Of a DNA stretch of 64,000 nucleotides, positions 34,700-49,042 are shown piece by piece. The DNA is from Acetobacterium sp. KB-1. Its GTDB lineage: Bacteria; Bacillota; Clostridia; Eubacteriales; Eubacteriaceae. Each line of letters starts with the position of its first letter. Position 1 is the stretch's first letter. The notes beneath the pieces were generated by a model. It was not told the origin of the DNA. It worked only from the letters and a program-made list of their open reading frames with translations, and did not search any database. The DNA lies in the NCBI RefSeq assembly GCF_003260995.1, contig NZ_CP030040.1, forward strand, positions 928,578-992,577. The letters run 5' to 3'. Position numbers and translations under genes: made by a program.

Positions 34700-35278
34700 T
34701 TATTTGTCCTCCTCTAATCTGGTTTTGTTAATCTTCATAAATGCATTTAAAAATTCTGCTGTGAACATACCAAAATCTTCTGATTCAAACCAGATCTTCC
34801 CGTTCTCGTCTTTATAAATAGCAATATCTGCATCATTAAGAGCTTCATAAAACTCGAATAATTCAGTGTACTGGGGGCAGAAACAAGAAATTAGTTCTGC
34901 CATATCTGGGGATTCGCTTTGTTGCTTTGAATTAATATCTCCTCTGCTTTCTGCAACCTCCTCTGCAACAACTACTGCAGTTTCAAATGGTATTGAAAAC
35001 CATTCGGAAATTATTTTTTCACAACGCATTCTTCTATGCACTTCACACTCCACTTGATAACTATTTTGAAATGGCCCCAACAGCCGCTTCCTCAAAATTT
35101 TAAAGCCTCCAGCTCTCTCCAAAACTTTTATTCGTTCCTCTGGCATTACCGACACACCAACCTTCACGCGGTTCTGCTCTTTTTCAATGATGTATATCCA
35201 TTGTTTAGGCGCAATCATTTTGGTGGGTGATTTGTCAGCAAAAATTCCGTATTCATCTTTAGGTATCAATTCTTTCAT
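34700..35278 (-). CDS. T5orf172/GIY-YIG-like domain protein
   Basis: 192 residues from ATG 35278 behind GGAGG. Residues 25-110 fit the T5orf172 (MUG113) domain, a GIY-YIG-related nuclease fold: WIYIIEKEQNRVKVGVSVMPEERI, then the catalytic-region EVHRRMRCEKIISEWFSIP. The C-terminal part is acidic. It may be a nuclease of the replication module or a former homing enzyme. The 250 bases before it contain a hairpin (35304-35338) but no gene. Confidence 0.75.
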   Translation of the reverse strand: MKELIPKDEYGIFADKSPTKMIAPKQWIYIIEKEQNRVKVGVSVMPEERIKVLERAGGFKILRKRLLGPFQNSYQVECEVHRRMRCEKIISEWFSIPFETAVVVAEEVAESRGDINSKQQSESPDMAELISCFCPQYTELFEFYEALNDADIAIYKDENGKIWFESEDFGMFTAEFLNAFMKINKTRLEEDK

Positions 35279-35303
35279 TGAAATACCTCCGTTCATAAAA
35301 GTA

Positions 35304-35338
35304 GGGTTTTGCCCTCTAATAGTCAAAGGACAAAACCC
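35304..35338 (-). promoter_or_regulatory. Leader hairpin before the T5orf172 gene
   Basis: Stem GGGTTTTG (35338-35331) / CAAAACCC (35311-35304), 26 bases before the start codon. Could be a transcription terminator for the polymerase remnant or a translation control element; the T-tract is weak. Confidence 0.45.
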
Positions 35339-35528: not shown

Positions 35529-36222
35529 TTAATCTTTTTGATAAAACTGACATTCGTAACCATCGGCTCGCAGTAACAAGCCTTTTGCCCAGGGTGGTGT
35601 TCTTGCCATTTGCTCGCAAACAGCAGAAAGTGACATGCGCATATCCGCCTCAATAATTATTTCATCATGGACATGAGCTACAATGAAGCAGCTCTTTAAT
35701 GTCTCCATAGCAAAGCATAAAATGTCTCGGCTAATTGCCTGAACGATATTTTCAACAAATTTCGGACCATAGCTTTCAATCCGCTCCCATTTCTTTGTGC
35801 CGCCCACCCCTTCATAGGAAACAGACTCGCCACCAAAGCGGTTCTCCCCAATTCGAGGCTTTACATAAGCCAGTTTTCTGCCAGAAGGAAGGGTGATAAA
35901 TAGAAAGCCACTTTGATAAGAAAAGTAAATACCGTGAGTTTCTGATGTCGTTTTTTGTTTGATACATTCTTTTACAACTCGATCCACGGCCCACCAGAAA
36001 CGAACGATATTTGGATTAGCCTGACGCCAGGCATCAACCAGTGGCTTTAACTCATCCTCCTGCATACCGGATTCTAGAGCTCCCATTGCCTTTAGCGCTC
36101 CGACTGATCCGCCATACCCACAGTTGTGGACGAGTTTTCCCGATACGGTAAAACGGTGATGTGGTCCGGCATTTCGTATGTCATAAAGTCGAGCCTTGCA
36201 CTGATTAATTTCCAATTTTTCC
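35529..36222 (-). pseudogene. DNA polymerase A family, C-terminal fragment preceded by intein C-terminus
   Basis: From Cys at 36122-36120 onward the frame encodes about 197 residues of phage family A polymerase: CGYGGSVGALKAMGAL (finger O-helix side), YGPKFVENIVQAISRDIL and the motif C HVHDEIIIEA with its catalytic Asp. Directly before the Cys is a typical intein end: YDIRNAGPHHRFTVSGKLVHN, with the penultimate His and terminal Asn needed for splicing. The N-terminal two thirds of the polymerase, and the intein N-terminal splicing block, are absent from the window. The frame upstream of about 36222 joins an HNH frame only after a one-base shift. Confidence 0.8.
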
Positions 36223-37321
36223 TTTTTTCGAATACTGCTGTTTCGGCATCCTGAATTATTTCGTCCCTGCTTAATCCCACAGATAATTTTCGGACAACCA
36301 CATTTCTTACGTAAGGCCAATATTCCTGAGAAAAATGACTGAGAACCGTACATCTTTTGTTTCTGTTGTTCTCTAAATGTGTTACAAAACGGAGATTGCC
36401 AGGTGCATAATCCAGATTGTTGTTTATCCGATCGATTTCCAACTCTTTTGGTGGTAAGCCAAATGTTTTTATTAAATAAAGACCAGCTTCGGTAACACTT
36501 GTAAAAGCAAATTTTATTCCTCTCGCACCGTAATTGTGATAACCTCCATCGTTTGGATTTTCGCAACGTTGTTTTGCTGCCGCAAGTCTTCGATCCAACC
36601 AGAGCGGAATCTGCCTTGGTTGAGAACAACTTTGACAACCTCTCGATTTCCCGCTTTTTAAACTGGAATACAGCTGCCACTGAATGCTTCCGCACCCTGT
36701 ACACTGGGTCAGCACATAACAATGATTCATTTTTTTGTTCCAACGTTTCTCGGATGAAATAATCTTCACCCAACCGAATTGTTGTCCCACCATCTCCGGT
36801 TTGTATGAGATGTGCGCCGCTGGCGGCGGCGATTCCAAATTGTATCGGCTGCGATTGTTCTTACGCTTATTGACACCTTTTTGGCTCATACCAATAGCTT
36901 GTCCAATTTCCGCTTCACTATGGTCATGACTGTACATTTCCATAATGGTTCGATCAATTTCTTCCAATTCATCGAGCGCCTTATGCAGCTCATCAATCAT
37001 GACCTGCTTCATAACATTTGCTTCAAGGTCATAGGTATCAGCGGTTTCGTACTCAGTTTCCTCGTACATTTTATCCAGTGAAGGCATTGGCTCCTGACGC
37101 TGTTCACGCTTATCCTCGCGCCAAATCGGACGCATATACTCGTAATACTGCTCCTTAGTTACGGAAATCATAATCACCTTCTTGCGTTTGTTCCCAATTT
37201 TCGTCCAAACCACATCCGATGGGTTAATGCCGAAATCTTTAATGGTTTCTGCTGTTACTTCCATTGGGATGTAATACTGTTTACTGTCGTTGTTTGTCTG
37301 TAGATTTTCACTTTTGTCCAT
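36092..37321 (-). CDS. Chimeric ORF: sigma-like protein fused to HNH homing endonuclease
   Basis: About 409 residues from ATG 37321 (AAGGAGG upstream). Residues 1-160 resemble the phage/ICE sigma-70-like family (YYIPMEVTAETI, VTKEQYYEYMRPIWRE, IDRTIMEMYSHDHSEAEIGQAIGMSQKGVNKRKN). The family normally ends with about 15 more residues; here it breaks off after NKRKN and changes to an AP2/HNH endonuclease (VGQQFGWVKIISSEK, CTGCGSIQWQLYSSLKSG, AKQRCENPNDGGYHNYGARGI, ELEIDRINNNLDYAPGNLRF). The last about 45 residues are out of frame with the intein C-terminus; one base added in the run of six A at 36228-36223 would restore it. Most likely a deletion product. Confidence 0.7.
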   Translation of the reverse strand: MDKSENLQTNNDSKQYYIPMEVTAETIKDFGINPSDVVWTKIGNKRKKVIMISVTKEQYYEYMRPIWREDKREQRQEPMPSLDKMYEETEYETADTYDLEANVMKQVMIDELHKALDELEEIDRTIMEMYSHDHSEAEIGQAIGMSQKGVNKRKNNRSRYNLESPPPAAHISYKPEMVGQQFGWVKIISSEKRWNKKMNHCYVLTQCTGCGSIQWQLYSSLKSGKSRGCQSCSQPRQIPLWLDRRLAAAKQRCENPNDGGYHNYGARGIKFAFTSVTEAGLYLIKTFGLPPKELEIDRINNNLDYAPGNLRFVTHLENNRNKRCTVLSHFSQEYWPYVRNVVVRKLSVGLSRDEIIQDAETAVFEKRKNWKLISARLDFMTYEMPDHITVLPYRENSSTTVGMADQSER

Positions 37322-39337: not shown

Positions 39338-39721
39338 CTACTCAGTTGAAGATTTTAAATATATAAACGACTGAGGAGCATATTTAATTCCATAGTCCGA
39401 AAGCTTCCTGGGCTCATCATAAGCTTCTACATTTTTAAGCTTATATGCGACCGCTTTCTTTTTACCTTTATAATAGGCACGGAAAAAATTATAAGTTATT
39501 CCAGAGAACTCCTTGGTCTGTTTCCAAACTTCATTTTTATCATCTTCGATAATTTCATCAATCTCGGCTTCGGCTACTACCATTTTGTGTGGAGCCGTCG
39601 CATATATTATGATCTTATCAATCTCTGGTTTACATCGTACCTTTCTAAATTCAAAGTGCTTTTTTCCACTGAGAATGTTTTGAACATGCTCAGGATTAAT
39701 TGATAATAACATTTGACACAT
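39338..39721 (-). CDS. ASCH domain protein of the kinase/GNAT/ASCH cassette
   Basis: 127 residues from ATG 39721, eight bases after GGGAGGG. LLSINPEHVQNILSGKKHFEFRKVRCKPEIDKIIIYATAPHKMVV is a clear ASCH (PUA-like) opening; the conserved 'G.K..E.R' strand and the 'iyatap...vvaea' strand are present. ASCH domains bind RNA or modified nucleotides, and one bacterial form is a ribonuclease. Its start overlaps the GNAT stop by 26 bases. Role in the cassette unknown. Confidence 0.8.
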   Translation of the reverse strand: MCQMLLSINPEHVQNILSGKKHFEFRKVRCKPEIDKIIIYATAPHKMVVAEAEIDEIIEDDKNEVWKQTKEFSGITYNFFRAYYKGKKKAVAYKLKNVEAYDEPRKLSDYGIKYAPQSFIYLKSSTE

Positions 39722-40790
39722 CGATTTCGCCCTCCCTTAGTATAACGTCGAGTTGCTCAGGTGTTAACCGAGCGGTTGTTGGATACGAGTCTGGCCAAAG
39801 ACCATTATTCTTTAACCACATCCAATTAACATTATTTCCGGCTCCAAAAAAGCCGTAATACAACATCTCTACTACAACTAGATTTCGTTCATTATTATAT
39901 TTAACTCGAATTTCATTTTCATCAAAAACTGATTTATTATTAATTCGGTTTAGTAATTCTTCTAATTTAATATTAAAACGGTAATTTTCCTTCACGACTA
40001 TTACATCAGAGACAATGGCATAAGAAGTAACACAAGATTTATATCCTTTTGGTCCAGAACCAGTATATTTTCGATAAATAAGAATGGGTTCACCTACACG
40101 GTAAGGTAATCGACTGGTTGGAGAACCAATATAAATTTTTGTTAATCCATTCGCCACAGCAAGGCCAACTTGCTCTTGAAGTGTATTCTTCAATTCAGAG
40201 TAAGGAAATAAAGTGTCATGATAAACATCTTCGACGATCAGATAGCCAGCATTTCGAAACTCCGGATCAATAAACGGAAATGACTTATACGGATCACTAT
40301 AATCTACTTTATCTCTGCTTTTTACATATACACACTCATCATTCAGATTATGTCCTGCCAATTTAAAACCAAAACGTTCTAACTGGATGATTAACAAATC
40401 ATGCTTTTCGAACACCGTTACATAAATTTCATCCACCATAGATTGTTGCCATTTCCAAAGAGCTAACCCAATAGCACCTTCGCCAAGACGTTGTCCGCGG
40501 AATCGCTCGGCTAGACGAAGTGTACTGATTTTGACTCTCGGCTTTGCAGGAAGAACTTCTTCAATCATTTCAATTGATTCATTTTCTTCCTTGAGGCAAA
40601 CGAATGCGCCTAAACCTTCCTCGTCATCGAACACAAGTGCAGTTGAACCAGCATCAGATTTCTTTTGGAACCATTTTGCAAAACCAATATTAACCATATC
40701 CTCTGGATAGTCTTCCTTGAGGGTATCAAAAAATGGATCGCATAAATCTAATTCAGAGAACTTTTTAAACGTAAACTTACCCGCCATCAT
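39696..40790 (-). CDS. GNAT acetyltransferase fused to PUA/EVE-like domain
   Basis: 364 residues. Residues about 50-150 form a GNAT fold; the acetyl-CoA loop is RFRGQRLGEGAIGLALW, followed by EIYVTVFEKHDLLIIQLERFGFKLAG. Residues about 175-330 form a second domain (VGEPILIYRKYTGSGPKGYKSCVTSYAIV) resembling EVE/PUA-type nucleic-acid binders. It overlaps both neighbours (14 and 26 bases), so the three proteins are probably made together. It may modify an RNA or translation target, as GNAT toxins do, but no catalytic target can be read from the sequence. Confidence 0.72.
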   Translation of the reverse strand: MMAGKFTFKKFSELDLCDPFFDTLKEDYPEDMVNIGFAKWFQKKSDAGSTALVFDDEEGLGAFVCLKEENESIEMIEEVLPAKPRVKISTLRLAERFRGQRLGEGAIGLALWKWQQSMVDEIYVTVFEKHDLLIIQLERFGFKLAGHNLNDECVYVKSRDKVDYSDPYKSFPFIDPEFRNAGYLIVEDVYHDTLFPYSELKNTLQEQVGLAVANGLTKIYIGSPTSRLPYRVGEPILIYRKYTGSGPKGYKSCVTSYAIVSDVIVVKENYRFNIKLEELLNRINNKSVFDENEIRVKYNNERNLVVVEMLYYGFFGAGNNVNWMWLKNNGLWPDSYPTTARLTPEQLDVILREGEIDVSNVIIN

Positions 40791-41710: not shown

Positions 41711-44554
41711 ATGGGGAGATATACACCACACCAAACCCGTTATTTTGCTGAACAGATTATGCTGAAACGTCCGCAATCGGGTATTGACGGACTTGCCTCT
41801 TCCATGTCAGGCGTAAAAGTTGACCTAAATCCTCATCAGGTTGATGCGGCATTGTTCGCTTTGAAATCGCCCCTTTCTAATGGATCTCTTTTGGCGGATG
41901 AGGTTGGCTTGGGAAAAACAATTGAAGCTGGTTTGGTCCTTGCACAATTTTGGTCGGAGCGCAAACGTCGCATTTTACTAATTGTTCCGGCATCACTACG
42001 CACACAATGGCGAGCCGAACTCGATGAAAAATTTTATATAAAATCTACTATACTTGAATCCACAAAATTTAATAAACTAAAGAAGTCAGGTGTACTTAAC
42101 CCTTTCGAGATTAAGGATGAAGTCGTGATCTGCTCTTATAATTTTGCATCATTAAAAGAGAATGAAGTTTACGCAACTTCTTGGGATCTCGTTATTATTG
42201 ATGAAGCACATCGCCTCCGAAATGTTTATAAATCGAGTAATATCATGGGTAAACGCCTAAAACGAGCCCTCTCTGGCAAACGAAAACTATTACTCACCGC
42301 TACTCCTCTTCAAAACAATCTGATGGAATTATACGGCTTAGTTAGTATTATTGATGAACATGTTTTTGGTGATGCTCGGACCTTTAGAGATATGTATGTA
42401 TCTGTTTCTAATGAGGAGATTAGAAATCTCGCTTTAAGGACTCGCTTGAGACAGTTTTGCAAGCGTACTCTGCGCAATCAAGTAACGGAGTATGTCAATT
42501 ACACAAATCGTATCGCTATTTTGCAGGAATATACCCCGACCGACGATGAGGAAAAGTTATACAATCTAGTTTCTTCCTATTTGCAGACCGAAAGGCTCTT
42601 TGCTCTTCCTCAAGGACAGCGAGCACTGATAACTCTAGTATTAAGAAAACTTCTTGCGTCATCTTCTTTCGCTATTTCCGGCACCTTGAACTCCTTGATA
42701 GATCGCCTGGAAGCTCTCCTAAAAGGTTTAGATACCCAACTTGAATTCAAGGATGATTATGATACCTTTGATGAGTTGGTCGAGGAACAAGAAGAATCCG
42801 ACAATCTTCTACTCGCAGACCTCGAACAGGATCGTGCCTCTGTTTCTCAAGAGCTTGACAAACTGAGAGGATTTGCAGAACTAGCTAAAAGTATTACTAA
42901 TAATTCAAAAGGTGATAATCTACTGATTGCACTACAAAAAGGTTTTGATGAAACCGAAAAACGTGGAGGTCAGCGCAAAGCTGTTATTTTTACAGAATCA
43001 CGACGAACTCAAGAATACCTACTAAATCTTTTGTCAAACCATGGATATTCTGACGATATCGTATTCTTGAATGGTACAAATAATGATGCAATATCTAGAC
43101 GCATTTATACAGAATGGAAAGATCGGCACAAACATGATGGTATCATTTCAGGCTCACGTCAAGCTGATATGAAAACGGCTGTTGTAGAAGAATTTCGTGA
43201 TAGGGCAAGTATTTTGATTGGAACTGAAGCTGCCGCAGAGGGTATTAATCTTCAGTTTTGCAGTTTAATTGTTAATTATGACCTACCTTGGAACCCACAG
43301 CGTATCGAACAGCGTATTGGCCGATGTCATCGTTATGGGCAGAAAAACGATGTTGTCGTCATAAATTTTTTGAATAGAAATAATGCTGCCGATGTCCGGG
43401 TCTTTGAACTCCTTGACCAAAAATTTCGACTTTTTAGTGGCTTGTTTGGCTCTTCAGATGATGTTCTAGGTTCAATTGAATCAGGAATTGATTTTGAAAA
43501 ACGCATTGCAAGAATATATCAGACCTGTAAATCTACAGATGAGATACAAGGAGAATTTGATCAACTCCAGAAAGAATTGTCCGAGCACATTAACGAAAAG
43601 ATAATGGCGGCTCGGCAGTCCATTCTTGAAAATTTTGATGAAGAGGTCGCCGCTCGTCTCAAGGGTTGCCAAGAAGACACTCTTGCTGGGTTAGATAAAT
43701 TCACCCGATGGCTATGCAACTTTTTTATTATGAAAGGTGCAGAGCGGGTTAAGCCACTGGATCAATGGCGTTTTTCCTATCGATTGAACGGATCAGAGGA
43801 AACCTATAATGTACAATGGAAAGATGCGGAACGGCAAGGTGACATATTTTTGAGACGTGAGGATCCAATGTGTCAACAATGGCTTTCAGAAGCCATTGCA
43901 ACTACATTACCGCTTGTAACGATCCGTTTTGATCATACTAATTCACCTGATCATCATATTAGTTTTTTAGAGAAACACCCAAACTTATCTGGTGTTCTTT
44001 CTGTAGACAAGCTAATTTATAGTGGCTTTGACACTGAAGAACATTTAATTATATCTATTGTTACTGACGACGGTACGCTAATTGATGATGACATGATTAA
44101 CCGCATCATGGAACTGCCATCCGAAATTACTGATGAACCAGTAAATGAGATTTTAGATTTAGATACTCTTCGAAAAGCTAATACTGAGATGCAAAAATTT
44201 GAAATTGAAAGGATTAACAAAGAATACTTTTTAGCGGAATGTGAAAAACTTGATGCCTTCAGTGAAGATCTTAAGGAAGGAATACAGAGAGAACTTAAGG
44301 ATCTTAATAAAGAAATCAAAGAAAAAAAGCGAATTTTCAAAGCAAGTACTGATAAGACATTGGCTGAAATGTTAGAAATGAAAGAAGAAGTAACTCATCT
44401 AGAAGAAAAACGAAAGAAACTGCGTCGCGAGATTTATGATCGTGAAGATGAAATTGACACACAAAACGAACGACTGCAAGAAGAAATTCGAGCAAAATTG
44501 GAAGGCGCGGCTGCTTTAGAACATATTATGACTATCTCTTTTGAGATTGTGTAA
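41711..44554 (+). CDS. SNF2/RapA-like helicase with C-terminal coiled coil
   Basis: 947 residues. Motif I DEVGLGKT (63-70), motif II IIDEAH (about 162-167), motif III LLTATPLQNN, and motifs V/VI GTEAAAEGINLQF and QRIEQRIGRCHRYGQ (about 505-545), all intact. A long insertion lies between the two RecA lobes, and a strongly charged coiled coil spans about 830-925. Similar SNF2 proteins appear in DISARM (DrmD), but DrmA, DrmB and DrmC are missing here. The methyltransferase starts 17 bases downstream, so it probably works with the type III enzyme as a translocase. Confidence 0.9.
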   Translation: MGRYTPHQTRYFAEQIMLKRPQSGIDGLASSMSGVKVDLNPHQVDAALFALKSPLSNGSLLADEVGLGKTIEAGLVLAQFWSERKRRILLIVPASLRTQWRAELDEKFYIKSTILESTKFNKLKKSGVLNPFEIKDEVVICSYNFASLKENEVYATSWDLVIIDEAHRLRNVYKSSNIMGKRLKRALSGKRKLLLTATPLQNNLMELYGLVSIIDEHVFGDARTFRDMYVSVSNEEIRNLALRTRLRQFCKRTLRNQVTEYVNYTNRIAILQEYTPTDDEEKLYNLVSSYLQTERLFALPQGQRALITLVLRKLLASSSFAISGTLNSLIDRLEALLKGLDTQLEFKDDYDTFDELVEEQEESDNLLLADLEQDRASVSQELDKLRGFAELAKSITNNSKGDNLLIALQKGFDETEKRGGQRKAVIFTESRRTQEYLLNLLSNHGYSDDIVFLNGTNNDAISRRIYTEWKDRHKHDGIISGSRQADMKTAVVEEFRDRASILIGTEAAAEGINLQFCSLIVNYDLPWNPQRIEQRIGRCHRYGQKNDVVVINFLNRNNAADVRVFELLDQKFRLFSGLFGSSDDVLGSIESGIDFEKRIARIYQTCKSTDEIQGEFDQLQKELSEHINEKIMAARQSILENFDEEVAARLKGCQEDTLAGLDKFTRWLCNFFIMKGAERVKPLDQWRFSYRLNGSEETYNVQWKDAERQGDIFLRREDPMCQQWLSEAIATTLPLVTIRFDHTNSPDHHISFLEKHPNLSGVLSVDKLIYSGFDTEEHLIISIVTDDGTLIDDDMINRIMELPSEITDEPVNEILDLDTLRKANTEMQKFEIERINKEYFLAECEKLDAFSEDLKEGIQRELKDLNKEIKEKKRIFKASTDKTLAEMLEMKEEVTHLEEKRKKLRREIYDREDEIDTQNERLQEEIRAKLEGAAALEHIMTISFEIV

Positions 44555-44571
44555 AATACGGAGGTTATACG

Positions 44572-46308
44572 ATGCAAAGACTTGAATTAACATGGATTGG
44601 AAAAGGCGAAGAACCAAAGGTAGAACCTCGTATTCTTCTTCACGATTCATCAAAAGATTACGGCGACTCTGATACTGATAATATTTTAATACACGGAGAC
44701 AATCTGCTGGCTTTAAAAGCTTTAGAACAACAGTATTCGGGTCAAGTGAAATGTATCTACATCGACCCACCTTATAACACAGGTGAAGCATTTGATGAAT
44801 ATGATGATAACTTGGAGCATTCTATTTGGCTACATTTAATGTATAGTCGACTAAGCTTGCTGAAAAATTTACTGTCTGAGGACGGGGTTATTTTCGTACA
44901 GCTAAATGATGAAGAAATGAATTACTGTAAAGTCATAATGGATGAAATTTTTGGACGCAAAAATTTCATTAATTTAGTTGCCGTCAAAACCAAGAATTCT
45001 TCTGGTGCAAGTGGAGGCGGAGAAGATAGAAAGTTAAAGAAAAATATTGAATTTATTTTGTGCTATGGGAACCCAATGTTTAAGAAGTTTAATCCGGTGT
45101 ATACAACAACAGAACTCTCGAAATATTTGGAAAACATGCGTGAAAATGGAGTAAGTTTCAAGTATACAATGGTATTTACTAATCTTGGTGAGCGCACTTA
45201 CTATAAAACAATTATGGATGGCAGTGGAAATGACATTGTTATTTATGCTCATTCTGGATATGAGACGAAAAGTGTACGTCAGCTTGCTAAAGAAGATGAT
45301 ATTTCTGAAATTGAAGCATTTAACAAGTATTATGAGTATGTATGTACTACCGAAAACGCACAGACTTCTATTAGATCACGAGTCCAAGAAGCGACAGATA
45401 CTGAGGATAATTTGTATTCTATTGATTATTATCCTGTATCTGGACGCAATAAAGGAAAACTGACTACCGTTCATTTTGTCGGAAGAAACAAACGTCTTGT
45501 AAGTTGGTTTAAAAATGTATGTGTGAAGGAACGCGGATATATTTTTAAAAAAGAAAAAGTTGGTTCTCTTTGGAATGATCTTAACTGGAATAATGTTAAT
45601 CGAGAGGGTGGTGTCGTTTTCTCAGGGGGAAAGAAACCGGAAGTTTTGATCCAAAGAATTCTTGAATTAGCCACTGAACCGGGAGACATCGTGCTAGATA
45701 GTTTTTTAGGCTCAGGTACAACCGCTGCTGTGGCTTTAAAGATGAGACGTCGTTGGATTGGTATAGAAATGGGTAATCATGCGTATACCTTATGTCAACC
45801 AAGACTAAATAGTATTATAAACGGAACTGACGATACGGGGATCTCAAAAGATGCAGATTGGCAAGGTGGCAGTGGTTACAAGTTTTACGAACTTGCTCCT
45901 ACATTGATTATCAAGGATGGTCACGGCAATCCCGTCTTCTCTGATAAGTACAATGTGGAAATGTTAGTCGCTGCGGTCGCAAAACTAAACGGCTTTATCT
46001 ATTCGCCCGATGTTGAATGTTTCTGGAAACAGGGCATCTCACAGGGGAATAGCTATATTTATGTTACCACTCAATACCTTACAGCTAAAGAATTAGACGA
46101 CATCGCCCGCGACATGCCAGAATTTGAAAAGTTACTCATATGCGCACCAGCATTCGATACTGGACTTAGTAAACGCTACGAAAACATCGATGTGCGCAAA
46201 ATCCCGCAGTCTTTGCTTTCAAAATGCGAATACGGTGTGGAAAGCTATAACTTGAACATCGTAAATCCACCAGAGTTCAACGAGGAGGAATGTGATGATG
46301 TTGAATAG
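44572..46308 (+). CDS. mod: Type III restriction-modification methyltransferase (Mod)
   Basis: 578 residues; ATG follows ACGGAGG. DPPYNTG (65-71) precedes the AdoMet motif LDSFLGSGTTAAVAL (about 378), the beta-class order of type III Mod enzymes, which methylate adenine on one strand. The centre (about 125-340) is the target-recognition region. It carries GDNLLALKALEQQYSG and SEDGVIFVQLNDEE, typical of the family. Overlaps the Res gene by 14 bases. Recognition sequence cannot be predicted. Confidence 0.93.
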   Translation: MQRLELTWIGKGEEPKVEPRILLHDSSKDYGDSDTDNILIHGDNLLALKALEQQYSGQVKCIYIDPPYNTGEAFDEYDDNLEHSIWLHLMYSRLSLLKNLLSEDGVIFVQLNDEEMNYCKVIMDEIFGRKNFINLVAVKTKNSSGASGGGEDRKLKKNIEFILCYGNPMFKKFNPVYTTTELSKYLENMRENGVSFKYTMVFTNLGERTYYKTIMDGSGNDIVIYAHSGYETKSVRQLAKEDDISEIEAFNKYYEYVCTTENAQTSIRSRVQEATDTEDNLYSIDYYPVSGRNKGKLTTVHFVGRNKRLVSWFKNVCVKERGYIFKKEKVGSLWNDLNWNNVNREGGVVFSGGKKPEVLIQRILELATEPGDIVLDSFLGSGTTAAVALKMRRRWIGIEMGNHAYTLCQPRLNSIINGTDDTGISKDADWQGGSGYKFYELAPTLIIKDGHGNPVFSDKYNVEMLVAAVAKLNGFIYSPDVECFWKQGISQGNSYIYVTTQYLTAKELDDIARDMPEFEKLLICAPAFDTGLSKRYENIDVRKIPQSLLSKCEYGVESYNLNIVNPPEFNEEECDDVE

Positions 46309-49042
46309 TAATGCGAAATATATTAATAACCGTCTTGCCTTGCGTCCTCCTCAGAAAGAGAGCTTAGAGCGATTTCAACAGATTTGCGAAATTCTTTCTC
46401 TTTCAAAGGAATCAGAATTAGATATCGAACTGAGAAAAATCAAAGAGATATTCCCTACTCTGACTTCATTTGAACGCGATTTTCCTTCAATTTGTTTTGC
46501 GCTTGCTACAGGTATAGGGAAAACTAGATTAATGGGCGCCTTCATTGCCTATCAATACTATGAAAAAGGCATAAAAAATTTTTTCGTTTTGGCACCTAAT
46601 CTCACTATTTATAACAAGCTAAAGAAAGACTTGGGTGATCCGTCAAGCGGAAAATATGTTTTTGCTGGTTTAGACAAGTTTGTAACGCCTCCTCGTATCA
46701 TAGACGGAGACAACTATGCCGAATTTAGACAAGGCAAATTTGGTGTAAACGAGGTTATTATTAACATTTTCAATATTTCAAAGTTAAATTCCGAAAGTAA
46801 AACGGCAAACGGCAAGCCTGCTCGTATTAAGCGTCTAACTGAAGTTCTAGGAGAGTCGTATTTTTCTTATTTGCAAAACTTACCCGATCTCTGTGTTCTG
46901 ATGGATGAAAGTCATCATTACCACGCTGACCGTAGCTTTGATGTCATTAATGAGCTAAAACCAGTGTTAGGGATAGAACTCACAGCTACACCGCAAATAC
47001 AAAAGGGCACACGGAAAATCGATTTCAAAAATGTAGTTTATGAATATTCCCTTGCTCATGCCTTAAACGACGGTCTTTACGTTAAAGTGCCAGTTGTATT
47101 CACCAGAAAGGACTTCCGTCCGGAAGAATATACTCCAGAGCAACTTGATCATGAAAAATTAAACGATGGCATTCGACTGCATGAAGAAACAAAAAACCGT
47201 CTGGATGTTTATTCTAGAAGTACGGGCAAAACACTCGTTAAACCTTTTGTACTAGTTGTTGCGAAAGACATGGATCACTCTCGCCAAATTCGTGAATACT
47301 TGACTTCACCCGATTTCTTTCGTGGTTATTATAAAGACAAAGTATTGGAAATTAACTCAGCTCAACGAGGTGCTGAAAAAAATGAAAACATTGAACTACT
47401 TTTATCCTTAGAGAATCCCGAAAATCATATCGAAATTGTAGTCCATGTTAATATGCTTAAAGAAGGTTGGGACGTAACTAATCTATATACTATCATTCCT
47501 CTTCGGGCTTCTGCATCCGAAACCCTTACTGAACAAACAATTGGACGAGGCCTCCGTTTACCTTATGGACAAAGAACGGATGTTGATGAGGTTGACCGGT
47601 TATCAATTGTAAGTCATGATCGTTATGAAGACATTGTGCGACTTGCCAATAATCCAGATTCTTTGGTGCGACGTGTTTTTTATATCGATCAGAATGAGTC
47701 GAAAAATGAAGAACAACGTGAAACTGTAGAACTTCCAAGTACTTATGATGAGATAACGCAATCCTCGAGCTTTACTGAACAGCTGATTTTTACCATTCGG
47801 GAAACAGCTAGTCAGAACTATACTACTAGCAAGACTCCTGAACAAACCGTTCAGGTAGCTCGATTTGTTGCACACCTTGCGTCCAAATCAGTTATTGAAC
47901 TCGGAAAACAAGTTAAAACTTTTGATGCAACTAAGGACGAGGAAATAATGCATATGGTTCGCTCAAGTATCGTTGGTGAAACCATCCGCCAATTCCCGAC
48001 ATTCAAACTTAAACATGAGGATCTGGAAGTTGTAGTCGGTACTGCCATAGAAACCTGTGTACAAACACTTACTGACAAAGTAATTCCTATTCCACAAGGT
48101 GTAGTTCAACCTTTCACCGAGGTCAAACACGGATTCTATGACTTTACCTTGGATACTCGGAGTTTAGGATGGCACCCCTCCGATGATACACTTATCGGTA
48201 CTGAGCTACAGGACGGTGGTGAGACTTTCGAATACGAGACAGATCTCGCATTATTCCCCAAGGCCGATACAGTTGAAAATGAGATCGTACGACATATCAT
48301 CGTTCATGACAATATTGATTATAGTAGTTGCTCGGATCTCATTTATTCACTTATTGCTGATGCTAAACAGCACTTTTTGTCGTACTTAAATGCTGAAGAA
48401 ACGGAAAAGGTTATGCGTAATCGGCAACGAAGCCTATCTGAAACCATATATACCCAGATGAATCAGCATTTTTATAAAGAAGAAACGAGCTATCAAGCTT
48501 CCGGTATGAGACCCTTTACAAGAATAGAATCTGGTTTCGGGGGTAAATTTAAATCCGATGATCTCTATGATTTGCGTGCGGATATGCCTGCCTCCGACGT
48601 TAAATCAAAGGTGTTTAAAGGTTTTAATAAGGCCTGCCATACATTATACAAATTTGATAGCAACACAGAGCGTGTTTTCGCCATTGTCCTCGAGAACGAT
48701 ACGGCTGTATTAAAATGGCTGCGTCCCAGCGCAAAGCAATTTAACATCTACTACGGGCCTAGCGGGGCGAATAAATATGAACCGGACTTCATCGTTGAAA
48801 CAGCAGAGAGTATCTATATGGTGGAAACAAAAGCTTCAAACGAAATAAGTAGCAAGGTTGTAAAAGAAAAGACCATTGCCGCGATTGAATATTGTCGTGC
48901 AGTTTCGGAGTGGAATTCTAGGAACGGCGGTAAACAATGGATTTATGCTCTAGTATCACATGACCAGGTTCGTTTACAATCTAGTTTCATGTATCTGATG
49001 AAAAATCACGTAAGGCCTGAACAACTGATGCTGGAGTTGTAG
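46295..49042 (+). CDS. res: Type III restriction endonuclease (Res)
   Basis: About 915 residues. GAGGAGG (46282-46288) is best placed for ATG 46295 or 46298; GTG 46292 is also possible. Helicase motifs: Walker A ATGIGKT (72-78), DESH in LMDESHHYHA, LTATPQI and EQTIGRGLRLPYG. The C-terminal nuclease shows PDFIVETAESIYMVETK, the PD-(D/E)XK core. With Mod it forms a complex that moves along DNA and cuts after meeting a second unmodified site. All key residues are present, so it should be active. Confidence 0.93.
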   Translation: MMLNSNAKYINNRLALRPPQKESLERFQQICEILSLSKESELDIELRKIKEIFPTLTSFERDFPSICFALATGIGKTRLMGAFIAYQYYEKGIKNFFVLAPNLTIYNKLKKDLGDPSSGKYVFAGLDKFVTPPRIIDGDNYAEFRQGKFGVNEVIINIFNISKLNSESKTANGKPARIKRLTEVLGESYFSYLQNLPDLCVLMDESHHYHADRSFDVINELKPVLGIELTATPQIQKGTRKIDFKNVVYEYSLAHALNDGLYVKVPVVFTRKDFRPEEYTPEQLDHEKLNDGIRLHEETKNRLDVYSRSTGKTLVKPFVLVVAKDMDHSRQIREYLTSPDFFRGYYKDKVLEINSAQRGAEKNENIELLLSLENPENHIEIVVHVNMLKEGWDVTNLYTIIPLRASASETLTEQTIGRGLRLPYGQRTDVDEVDRLSIVSHDRYEDIVRLANNPDSLVRRVFYIDQNESKNEEQRETVELPSTYDEITQSSSFTEQLIFTIRETASQNYTTSKTPEQTVQVARFVAHLASKSVIELGKQVKTFDATKDEEIMHMVRSSIVGETIRQFPTFKLKHEDLEVVVGTAIETCVQTLTDKVIPIPQGVVQPFTEVKHGFYDFTLDTRSLGWHPSDDTLIGTELQDGGETFEYETDLALFPKADTVENEIVRHIIVHDNIDYSSCSDLIYSLIADAKQHFLSYLNAEETEKVMRNRQRSLSETIYTQMNQHFYKEETSYQASGMRPFTRIESGFGGKFKSDDLYDLRADMPASDVKSKVFKGFNKACHTLYKFDSNTERVFAIVLENDTAVLKWLRPSAKQFNIYYGPSGANKYEPDFIVETAESIYMVETKASNEISSKVVKEKTIAAIEYCRAVSEWNSRNGGKQWIYALVSHDQVRLQSSFMYLMKNHVRPEQLMLEL

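What the first reader, a model, noticed from the sequence alone, without database searches (positions are those of the whole stretch)
35529..37321. Polymerase remnant with an intein C-terminus, joined to an HNH enzyme and a sigma-like protein
Seen: an intact-looking intein end (RFTVSGKLVHN followed by Cys, 36122-36120) precedes the last ~197 residues of a family A phage polymerase. Upstream is an AP2/HNH homing-type endonuclease, one frame off; one extra A in the run at 36223-36228 would join them. Further upstream the frame becomes a sigma-like protein that breaks after NKRKN. The polymerase N-terminal two thirds, the intein N-block and the usual DUF2800/DUF2815 genes are missing. Either a deletion of several kb, or the N-half is encoded elsewhere and works by trans-splicing.
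Basis: partly seen in the sequence, partly recalled or inferred. Interest (0 to 1): 0.66.

Follow-up and report, generated by a model that had tools for sequence, protein, structure and literature searches.

The report
Intein hiding an out-of-frame endonuclease
A broken phage DNA polymerase gene in this genome leads to a family of inteins (protein inserts that cut themselves out) whose DNA also encodes a DNA-cutting enzyme in a different reading frame, so two proteins share one stretch and ordinary annotation misses the second.

Summary
The frame offset is native, not damage: in all 28 other loci with a full HNH at this intein site (22 distinct sequences) HNH lies in the same +1 frame and the intein/polymerase frame stays open across it. 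Over 23 distinct sequences that frame has 0 stops where synonymous shuffling predicts about 220. HNH is under purifying selection; an ATG inside the intein N-part, usually behind GAGGT/GGAGG, is present in 28 of 28. The overlapped linker is predicted disordered between two HINT halves. The same design occurs at three further intein sites of phage polymerases. The window copy is a deletion derivative: about 4.2 kb removed the sigma tail, DUF2800, an ssDNA-binding gene, polymerase N-part and intein residues 1-64. No N-half lies elsewhere in the one-contig genome, so trans-splicing is not supported. Splicing, translation and homing are inferred. A 2025 paper describes hidden out-of-frame HNH, not in an intein; a preprint on non-canonical phage inteins could not be read.

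The parts
36857..37321 (-). Sigma-like protein, N-part; last ~12 residues replaced at the joint
   Evidence: Complete homologue in L008 3549-4049; Sigma70_r4_2 29.0 bits there, 24.8 here
36855..36857 (-). Deletion joint; CAA shared by both flanks
   Evidence: L008 match ends at CAA 4004-4006, L009 match begins at CAA 5012-5014
36092..36856 (-). AP2/HNH-type endonuclease frame, own start deleted, now in frame with the sigma-like gene (fused frame 36092-37321, 409 aa)
   Evidence: PHROGs 374 and 3377 HNH endonuclease; alignment A1, 97% to L088; L007 identical
36212..36790 (-). Dual-coding core: 193 HNH codons over an open polymerase/intein frame
   Evidence: 0 stops in the polymerase frame, 17.0 expected; third frame 13, 12.8 expected
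36123..36857 (-). Intein remnant in the polymerase frame, residues 65-309 of 309; catalytic C1, T55, H58 deleted, H308 N309 kept
   Evidence: Alignment A2 and relatives
35529..36122 (-). Family A phage DNA polymerase, last 197 residues, starting at the +1 Cys
   Evidence: PHROGs 10285 E 1.1e-83; tblastn to phage DNA polymerases

Best explanation
Undeleted relatives carry a 309-residue intein in a phage family A DNA polymerase. In the polymerase frame it is two HINT halves (about residues 1-93 and 280-309) joined by a ~186-residue linker without predicted structure. The DNA of that linker encodes, in the +1 frame, an HNH endonuclease that most likely starts at an ATG with its own ribosome site inside the intein N-part and stops near the intein end (from 50 nt before to 31 nt after). 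The whole precursor is translated; the intein should splice itself out and take the meaningless linker with it, while HNH is made separately and should drive homing into intein-less polymerase genes. Shown here: both frames kept, selection on HNH, stop-avoidance in the polymerase frame, conserved start signals, invariant splicing residues, predicted HINT fold. Inferred: splicing, translation of HNH, cleavage, homing. The window copy is a dead derivative: one ~4.2 kb deletion took the polymerase N-part, intein residues 1-64 and the HNH start, and joined the sigma-like gene in frame to HNH.
For: All 31 full HNH matches (28 other loci, 3 copies of the window's) among 177 loci are in relative frame 1, none in another frame. 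Polymerase-frame stops: 0 against 182.6 expected in 19 distinct sequences and 0 against 37.0 in 4 more; third frame 232 against 214.8; 8 free-standing HNH genes show no avoidance, 210 against 205.2. Changes fall at HNH codon position 3: 1491, 1196, 3204 for positions 1, 2, 3 over 28 pairs. ATG in 28 of 28; GAGGT/GGAGG in 14 of 16 distinct starts, 5.1 expected. C1, T55, H58, H308, N309 invariant in 27 of 27. Model: confident at 1-93 and 280-309, below pLDDT 50 at 94-279; 28 of 29 PDB matches are intein/HINT structures. Same design at three further sites. Deletion.
Against: No experiment: neither splicing nor HNH translation is shown. The start-signal test is significant only taken together: single-locus duplex energies reach p 0.04-0.44, and HNH-less inteins also keep ATG in 9 of 10 and the ribosome core in 6 of 10 against 3.3 expected. 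A TTG at codon 22 or 23 is an alternative start in nearly every locus. Best Foldseek E for the intein is 2.4e-3, none at 0.001 or below; profile search of PDB finds nothing. The HNH model has no usable PDB match, so HNH rests on PHROGs profiles. The sequences share ancestry and are not independent trials. Reads over the joint were not available.
Confidence: 0.87

Rival explanations
1. Frame-error decay: intein and HNH were one protein and the one-frame offset is a lesion of this copy.
For: HNH and intein C-part are one frame apart and the A-run lies near the change.
Against: Same offset in 28 of 28 other loci, both frames kept; intein exactly 309 aa in the 26 where its start was found by motif.
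Confidence: 0.02
2. Split intein: the N-half is encoded elsewhere and the polymerase forms by trans-splicing.
For: C-part and +1 Cys are intact.
Against: No N-half in the own genome (one contig, 99.99% complete) with a Pol+intein protein query; phrog_17 gives host PolI, the window piece and one E 2.6e-14 match to positions 663-831 in a 1428-aa frame that I did not identify. The polymerase remnant has no start of its own near the joint, and relatives are contiguous.
Confidence: 0.02
3. HNH is reached by ribosomal frameshifting from the polymerase frame instead of its own start, giving a Pol-N/intein-N/HNH fusion.
For: HNH is entirely inside the precursor frame; no start codon at the VG..GW segment in some loci (L035, L078).
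Against: ATG in 28 of 28 and ribosome core in 14 of 16 against 5.1 expected. No frameshift signal was searched for.
Confidence: 0.12
4. It is a group I intron with an ORF, as deposited for Sodalis phage SO-1.
For: SO-1 record calls gp38/gp39 a type I self-splicing intron.
Against: No intron family match in 7 loci, SO-1 included, at E up to 1; open host frame; invariant intein residues.
Confidence: 0.02
5. The window deletion is an assembly collapse.
For: Reads were not available; L007 is identical over 13,785 bases but may come from the same sequencing.
Against: Single-contig genome; flanks share only CAA, too short to collapse an assembly.
Confidence: 0.05
6. The sigma-HNH fusion is a functioning new protein.
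For: One open frame of 409 aa with the sigma gene's own start; HNH changes against L088 mostly at codon position 3 (2, 4, 25).
Against: No other locus with the fusion except the identical L007 and own-genome copies; the change pattern may predate the deletion.
Confidence: 0.06

Closest known systems
ShiLan-type hidden HNH insertion (Arsenault, Gosselin, Gogarten 2025, PMC11855218; parts 1-4 of 6 read)
   Same: Out-of-frame HNH in a phage gene, host frame left open, patchy distribution, annotation misses it.
   Different: There in a methylase, with no splicing domain; no ribosome site found. Here inside an intein with invariant splicing residues and a ribosome-site-like start, at four polymerase sites.
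Full-length inteins with an endonuclease domain (general knowledge)
   Same: Splicing halves flanking a homing endonuclease region; HNH+, HNH-less and empty alleles all seen.
   Different: The endonuclease is in another reading frame, not a domain of the intein protein.
Jerseyvirus intein-containing DNA polymerase (record HE775250)
   Same: Same gene, adjacent insertion site, intein recognised by the depositors.
   Different: Record says splicing domains only; the out-of-frame HNH is not annotated there.
Sodalis phage SO-1 gp38/gp39
   Same: The overlapping ORF was deposited.
   Different: Described as a type I self-splicing intron; no intron model match here.
Split inteins with a free-standing endonuclease gene between the halves (recalled)
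   Same: Endonuclease encoded apart from the splicing protein.
   Different: Here the precursor is one continuous frame in the relatives.

Membership tests
Intein (undeleted relatives) | Cys1, block B TxxH, C-terminal HN and +1 Cys | tested here: met
   C1, T55, H58, H308, N309 invariant in 27 of 27; +1 Cys in the loci classed
Intein (undeleted relatives) | HINT fold | tested here: met
   28 of 29 PDB matches are intein/HINT, best E 2.4e-3, prob 1.00; model confident only at 1-93 and 280-309
Intein (undeleted relatives) | In-frame insertion in a conserved protein site, with empty alleles | tested here: met
   ELA^CGYGG; intein-less polymerases are most of 177 loci, also in the same genus
Intein (undeleted relatives) | Protein splicing | not testable with these tools
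   Needs experiment
Intein (window copy) | Cys1 and TxxH | tested here: not met
   Residues 1-64 deleted
HNH homing endonuclease | HNH family profile | tested here: met
   PHROGs 374 E 6.6e-21 for L009; no Pfam or NCBIfam match; no PDB match
HNH homing endonuclease | Cleavage of the empty allele | not testable with these tools
   Needs experiment
ShiLan-type hidden HNH insertion | HNH out of frame, host frame open | tested here: met
ShiLan-type hidden HNH insertion | No splicing domain | tested here: not met
   Splicing residues and HINT fold present
Split intein | N-half encoded elsewhere | tested here: not met
   Own genome
Group I intron | Rfam intron match | tested here: not met
   0 intron matches in 7 loci, E up to 1

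The most novel reading that the evidence does not exclude
Out-of-frame nesting is a recurrent strategy, not an accident. HNH endonucleases have settled in overlapping frames inside inteins at four or more sites of phage family A polymerases, in two relative frames. The intein disposes of the shadow peptide by splicing; an internal ribosome site sets endonuclease output apart from the polymerase; and since an indel in HNH also breaks the polymerase, the overlap shields the selfish gene from indel decay (26 of 26 measured inteins are exactly 309 aa), though not from nonsense changes (L131).
Probability: 0.55. Interest if true: 0.75.

Novelty: new variant of a known kind. Interest (0 to 1): 0.62.

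Why it matters
Inteins are usually described as one protein with a splicing part and an endonuclease part. Here the two share DNA but not a reading frame, so surveys by protein sequence will take such elements for endonuclease-free. It gives the 'hidden HNH' idea of 2025 a setting in which the shadow peptide can be removed, names a concrete start site so that the open question of how such enzymes are translated can be tested, and suggests compact dual-coding inteins. It also reaches much-studied phages: 163 phage records match the Jerseyvirus HNH at 80% identity or more (host frame tested in phi135, Ent1 and SO-1 only).

Tried and rejected
Trans-splicing N-half: phrog_17, Pfam DNA_pol_A and a whole Pol+intein protein against the own genome; host PolI, the window remnant, and weak or unidentified matches only. 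Frame-error reading: rejected. Group I intron. Structural identity of HNH: no usable PDB match by sequence or fold. Intein profile against PDB sequences: none. A first motif for the intein start failed on all loci and was redone.

Literature: ten searches. PMC11855218: parts 1-4 of 6 read. PMC12613952: passages only, the same kind in a methylase. PMC8425127: passages only, inteins in Jersey-like phages, nothing on overlap. All other papers: listings only. The preprint 10.1101/2025.01.02.630785 is not held; PMC11855218 cites it for overlapping frames in actinobacteriophages, so out-of-frame inteins may already be described there.

Rows dropped: 31 loci gave 19 distinct regions; 8 were identical copies and 4 (L149, L156, L157, L165) failed a motif and were tested. 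In one search the three own copies (start deleted), L036 and L053 were skipped. HNH was sought with one query (L009), so a distant HNH type in a short intein would be missed.

Full report
WHAT IS IN THE WINDOW. On the minus strand a sigma-like gene starts at ATG 37321 and runs in frame into an HNH endonuclease frame that ends at 36092. One frame off, the polymerase frame is open from 36860 to the stop ending at 35529. It reads an intein up to VHN (36123) and then, from Cys 36122-36120, the last 197 residues of a family A phage polymerase. The setting is a prophage with integrase, tail, tape-measure, head, portal and terminase genes and a primase/helicase-like gene.

RELATIVES. The polymerase C-part found 340 viral loci of which 80 were kept and 278 genome loci of which 80 were kept. 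The nearest named ones are Acetobacterium (90-94%). I classed 177 loci by frame: 44 end in HN before the +1 Cys. Thirty-one carry a full HNH match; three of these are the window's own copies, and the 31 hold 23 distinct HNH regions. All are in relative frame 1, and no HNH match, full or partial, is in another frame. In 26 of the other 28 the intein start was found by motif, and the intein is 309 residues in all 26. The two without the motif are L120, whose polymerase frame is interrupted upstream although its HNH region equals that of L010, which is open, and L149, whose N-part is visible by eye. Twelve HNH-less inteins measure 121-168 aa. Hosts include Acetobacterium, Lachnospiraceae, Selenomonas, Streptococcus and Gardnerella. 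In the phage collection the seven HNH matches with 99-100% coverage (six Streptococcus phages, one Gardnerella phage) lie under features named only DNA polymerase.

BOTH FRAMES ARE KEPT. With the HNH protein and its codon usage fixed and synonymous codons shuffled, the polymerase frame should hold 5 to 17 stops per sequence; it holds none. Over 19 distinct sequences, the window's own included, 0 against 182.6; over the 4 first dropped, 0 against 37.0. The third frame is as expected (232 against 214.8). Eight free-standing HNH genes show no avoidance (210 against 205.2 in the same offset, 105 against 102.4 in the other). Changes between relatives fall mostly at HNH codon position 3, which is polymerase position 1: 1491, 1196 and 3204 at positions 1, 2, 3 over 28 pairs; HNH stays 57-80% identical, the shadow peptide 26-45%. 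So selection keeps the HNH sequence, and keeps the polymerase frame open but not its sequence. One locus, L131, has a stop in HNH while the polymerase frame stays open. Shared ancestry means these totals are not independent trials.

HOW HNH IS PROBABLY MADE. In 28 of 28 other loci with HNH an ATG in the HNH frame lies inside the intein N-part, codon 49 (27, L156). Of 16 distinct start regions 14 have GAGGT or GGAGG shortly upstream against 5.1 expected from synonymous recoding; mean duplex energy with the 16S end is -15.3 against -11.0. HNH-less inteins have 6 of 10 against 3.3, ATG in 9 of 10, and -11.6 against -9.9. Single loci are not convincing (p 0.04-0.44), and TTG at codon 22 or 23 is an alternative start. 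HNH stops from 50 nt before to 31 nt after the intein end.

HOW THE INTEIN PROBABLY WORKS. C1, T55, H58, H308 and N309 are invariant in 27 of 27 aligned inteins. The L009 model is confident at residues 1-93 and 280-309 and below pLDDT 50 at 94-279, the stretch over HNH. Of 29 PDB matches 28 are intein/HINT structures, best E 2.4e-3. The simplest reading is that the shadow linker is tolerated because it is spliced away. Splicing itself is inferred.

NOT ONE SITE ONLY. Salmonella phages phi135 and Ent1, Sodalis SO-1 and Pseudomonas MR14 have an intein at GKA or GKV^CEL with HNH in relative frame 2 and 0 host-frame stops: 4.9 expected, p 0.001; 4.5, p 0.001; 4.2, p 0.0025; 2.6, p 0.023. Caulobacter RLK and APSE-3 have an intein before CENVVQA/CENICQA with HNH in relative frame 1 and 0 stops: 5.1, p 0.0015; 6.4, p 0.001. 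That makes four sites and two relative frames, seen in seven examples beyond the window's family. The Ent1 record labels its intein 'encoding splicing domains' only. I did not survey inteins of other genes, where in-frame HNH inteins may be common.

WHAT HAPPENED IN THE WINDOW. L008 has the complete sigma-like gene, DUF2800 (E 2.2e-162), Enc34_ssDNA-bd (the family I knew as DUF2815; E 4.4e-74) and an intein-less polymerase. L009, L087 and L088 match the intein side at 88-90%. The joint is CAA at 36857-36855, present on both sides. From L008 4007-8003 plus L009 4820-5011 the loss is about 4.19 kb. It took intein residues 1-64 and the HNH start and put the sigma-like frame in frame with HNH. L007 is identical over 13,785 bases across the joint but may be the same sequencing. 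In the same genus G015 and G004 hold complete Pol+intein frames, while G012, G016 and a second G004 locus are intein-less. Nothing in the own genome could supply an N-half.

NOVELTY. PMC11855218 (parts 1-4 of 6 read) describes an out-of-frame HNH insert in a phage methylase, neither intein nor intron, and leaves its translation open. In ten searches of the held papers I found no report of an out-of-frame HNH inside an intein. The preprint 10.1101/2025.01.02.630785, on non-canonical architecture of actinobacteriophage inteins, was not readable here and may hold one. I rate this a new variant of a known kind.

Noticed in passing
window 41711-49042: SNF2 helicase (PADLOC DrmD E 3.6e-203) next to a type III methyltransferase and type III restriction enzyme: a defence locus beside the prophage.
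   Followed up: partly
window 39696-40790: Match to candidate defence family PDC-M11A, E 1.4e-65.
   Followed up: no
window 34700-35326: Small protein with MUG113/T5orf172 (GIY-YIG-like) matches and a PHROGs homing endonuclease match right after the polymerase remnant.
   Followed up: no
L012 5364-8633: This polymerase seems to carry a second, upstream intein (GRW^CLTGDHEVLT...) besides an HNH-less one at the window's site; seen by eye.
   Followed up: no
[quoted passage not shown]
   Followed up: partly
L197 2513-3409: PHROGs 93, named 'endonuclease', matches the polymerase-frame reading of the Jerseyvirus intein (E 4.2e-190), while the true HNH frame matches PHROGs 374: a family name that may rest on the shadow frame.
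   Followed up: no
L131 5255-5479: HNH frame stops after 75 codons while the polymerase frame stays open: an endonuclease in decay inside an open intein.
   Followed up: partly
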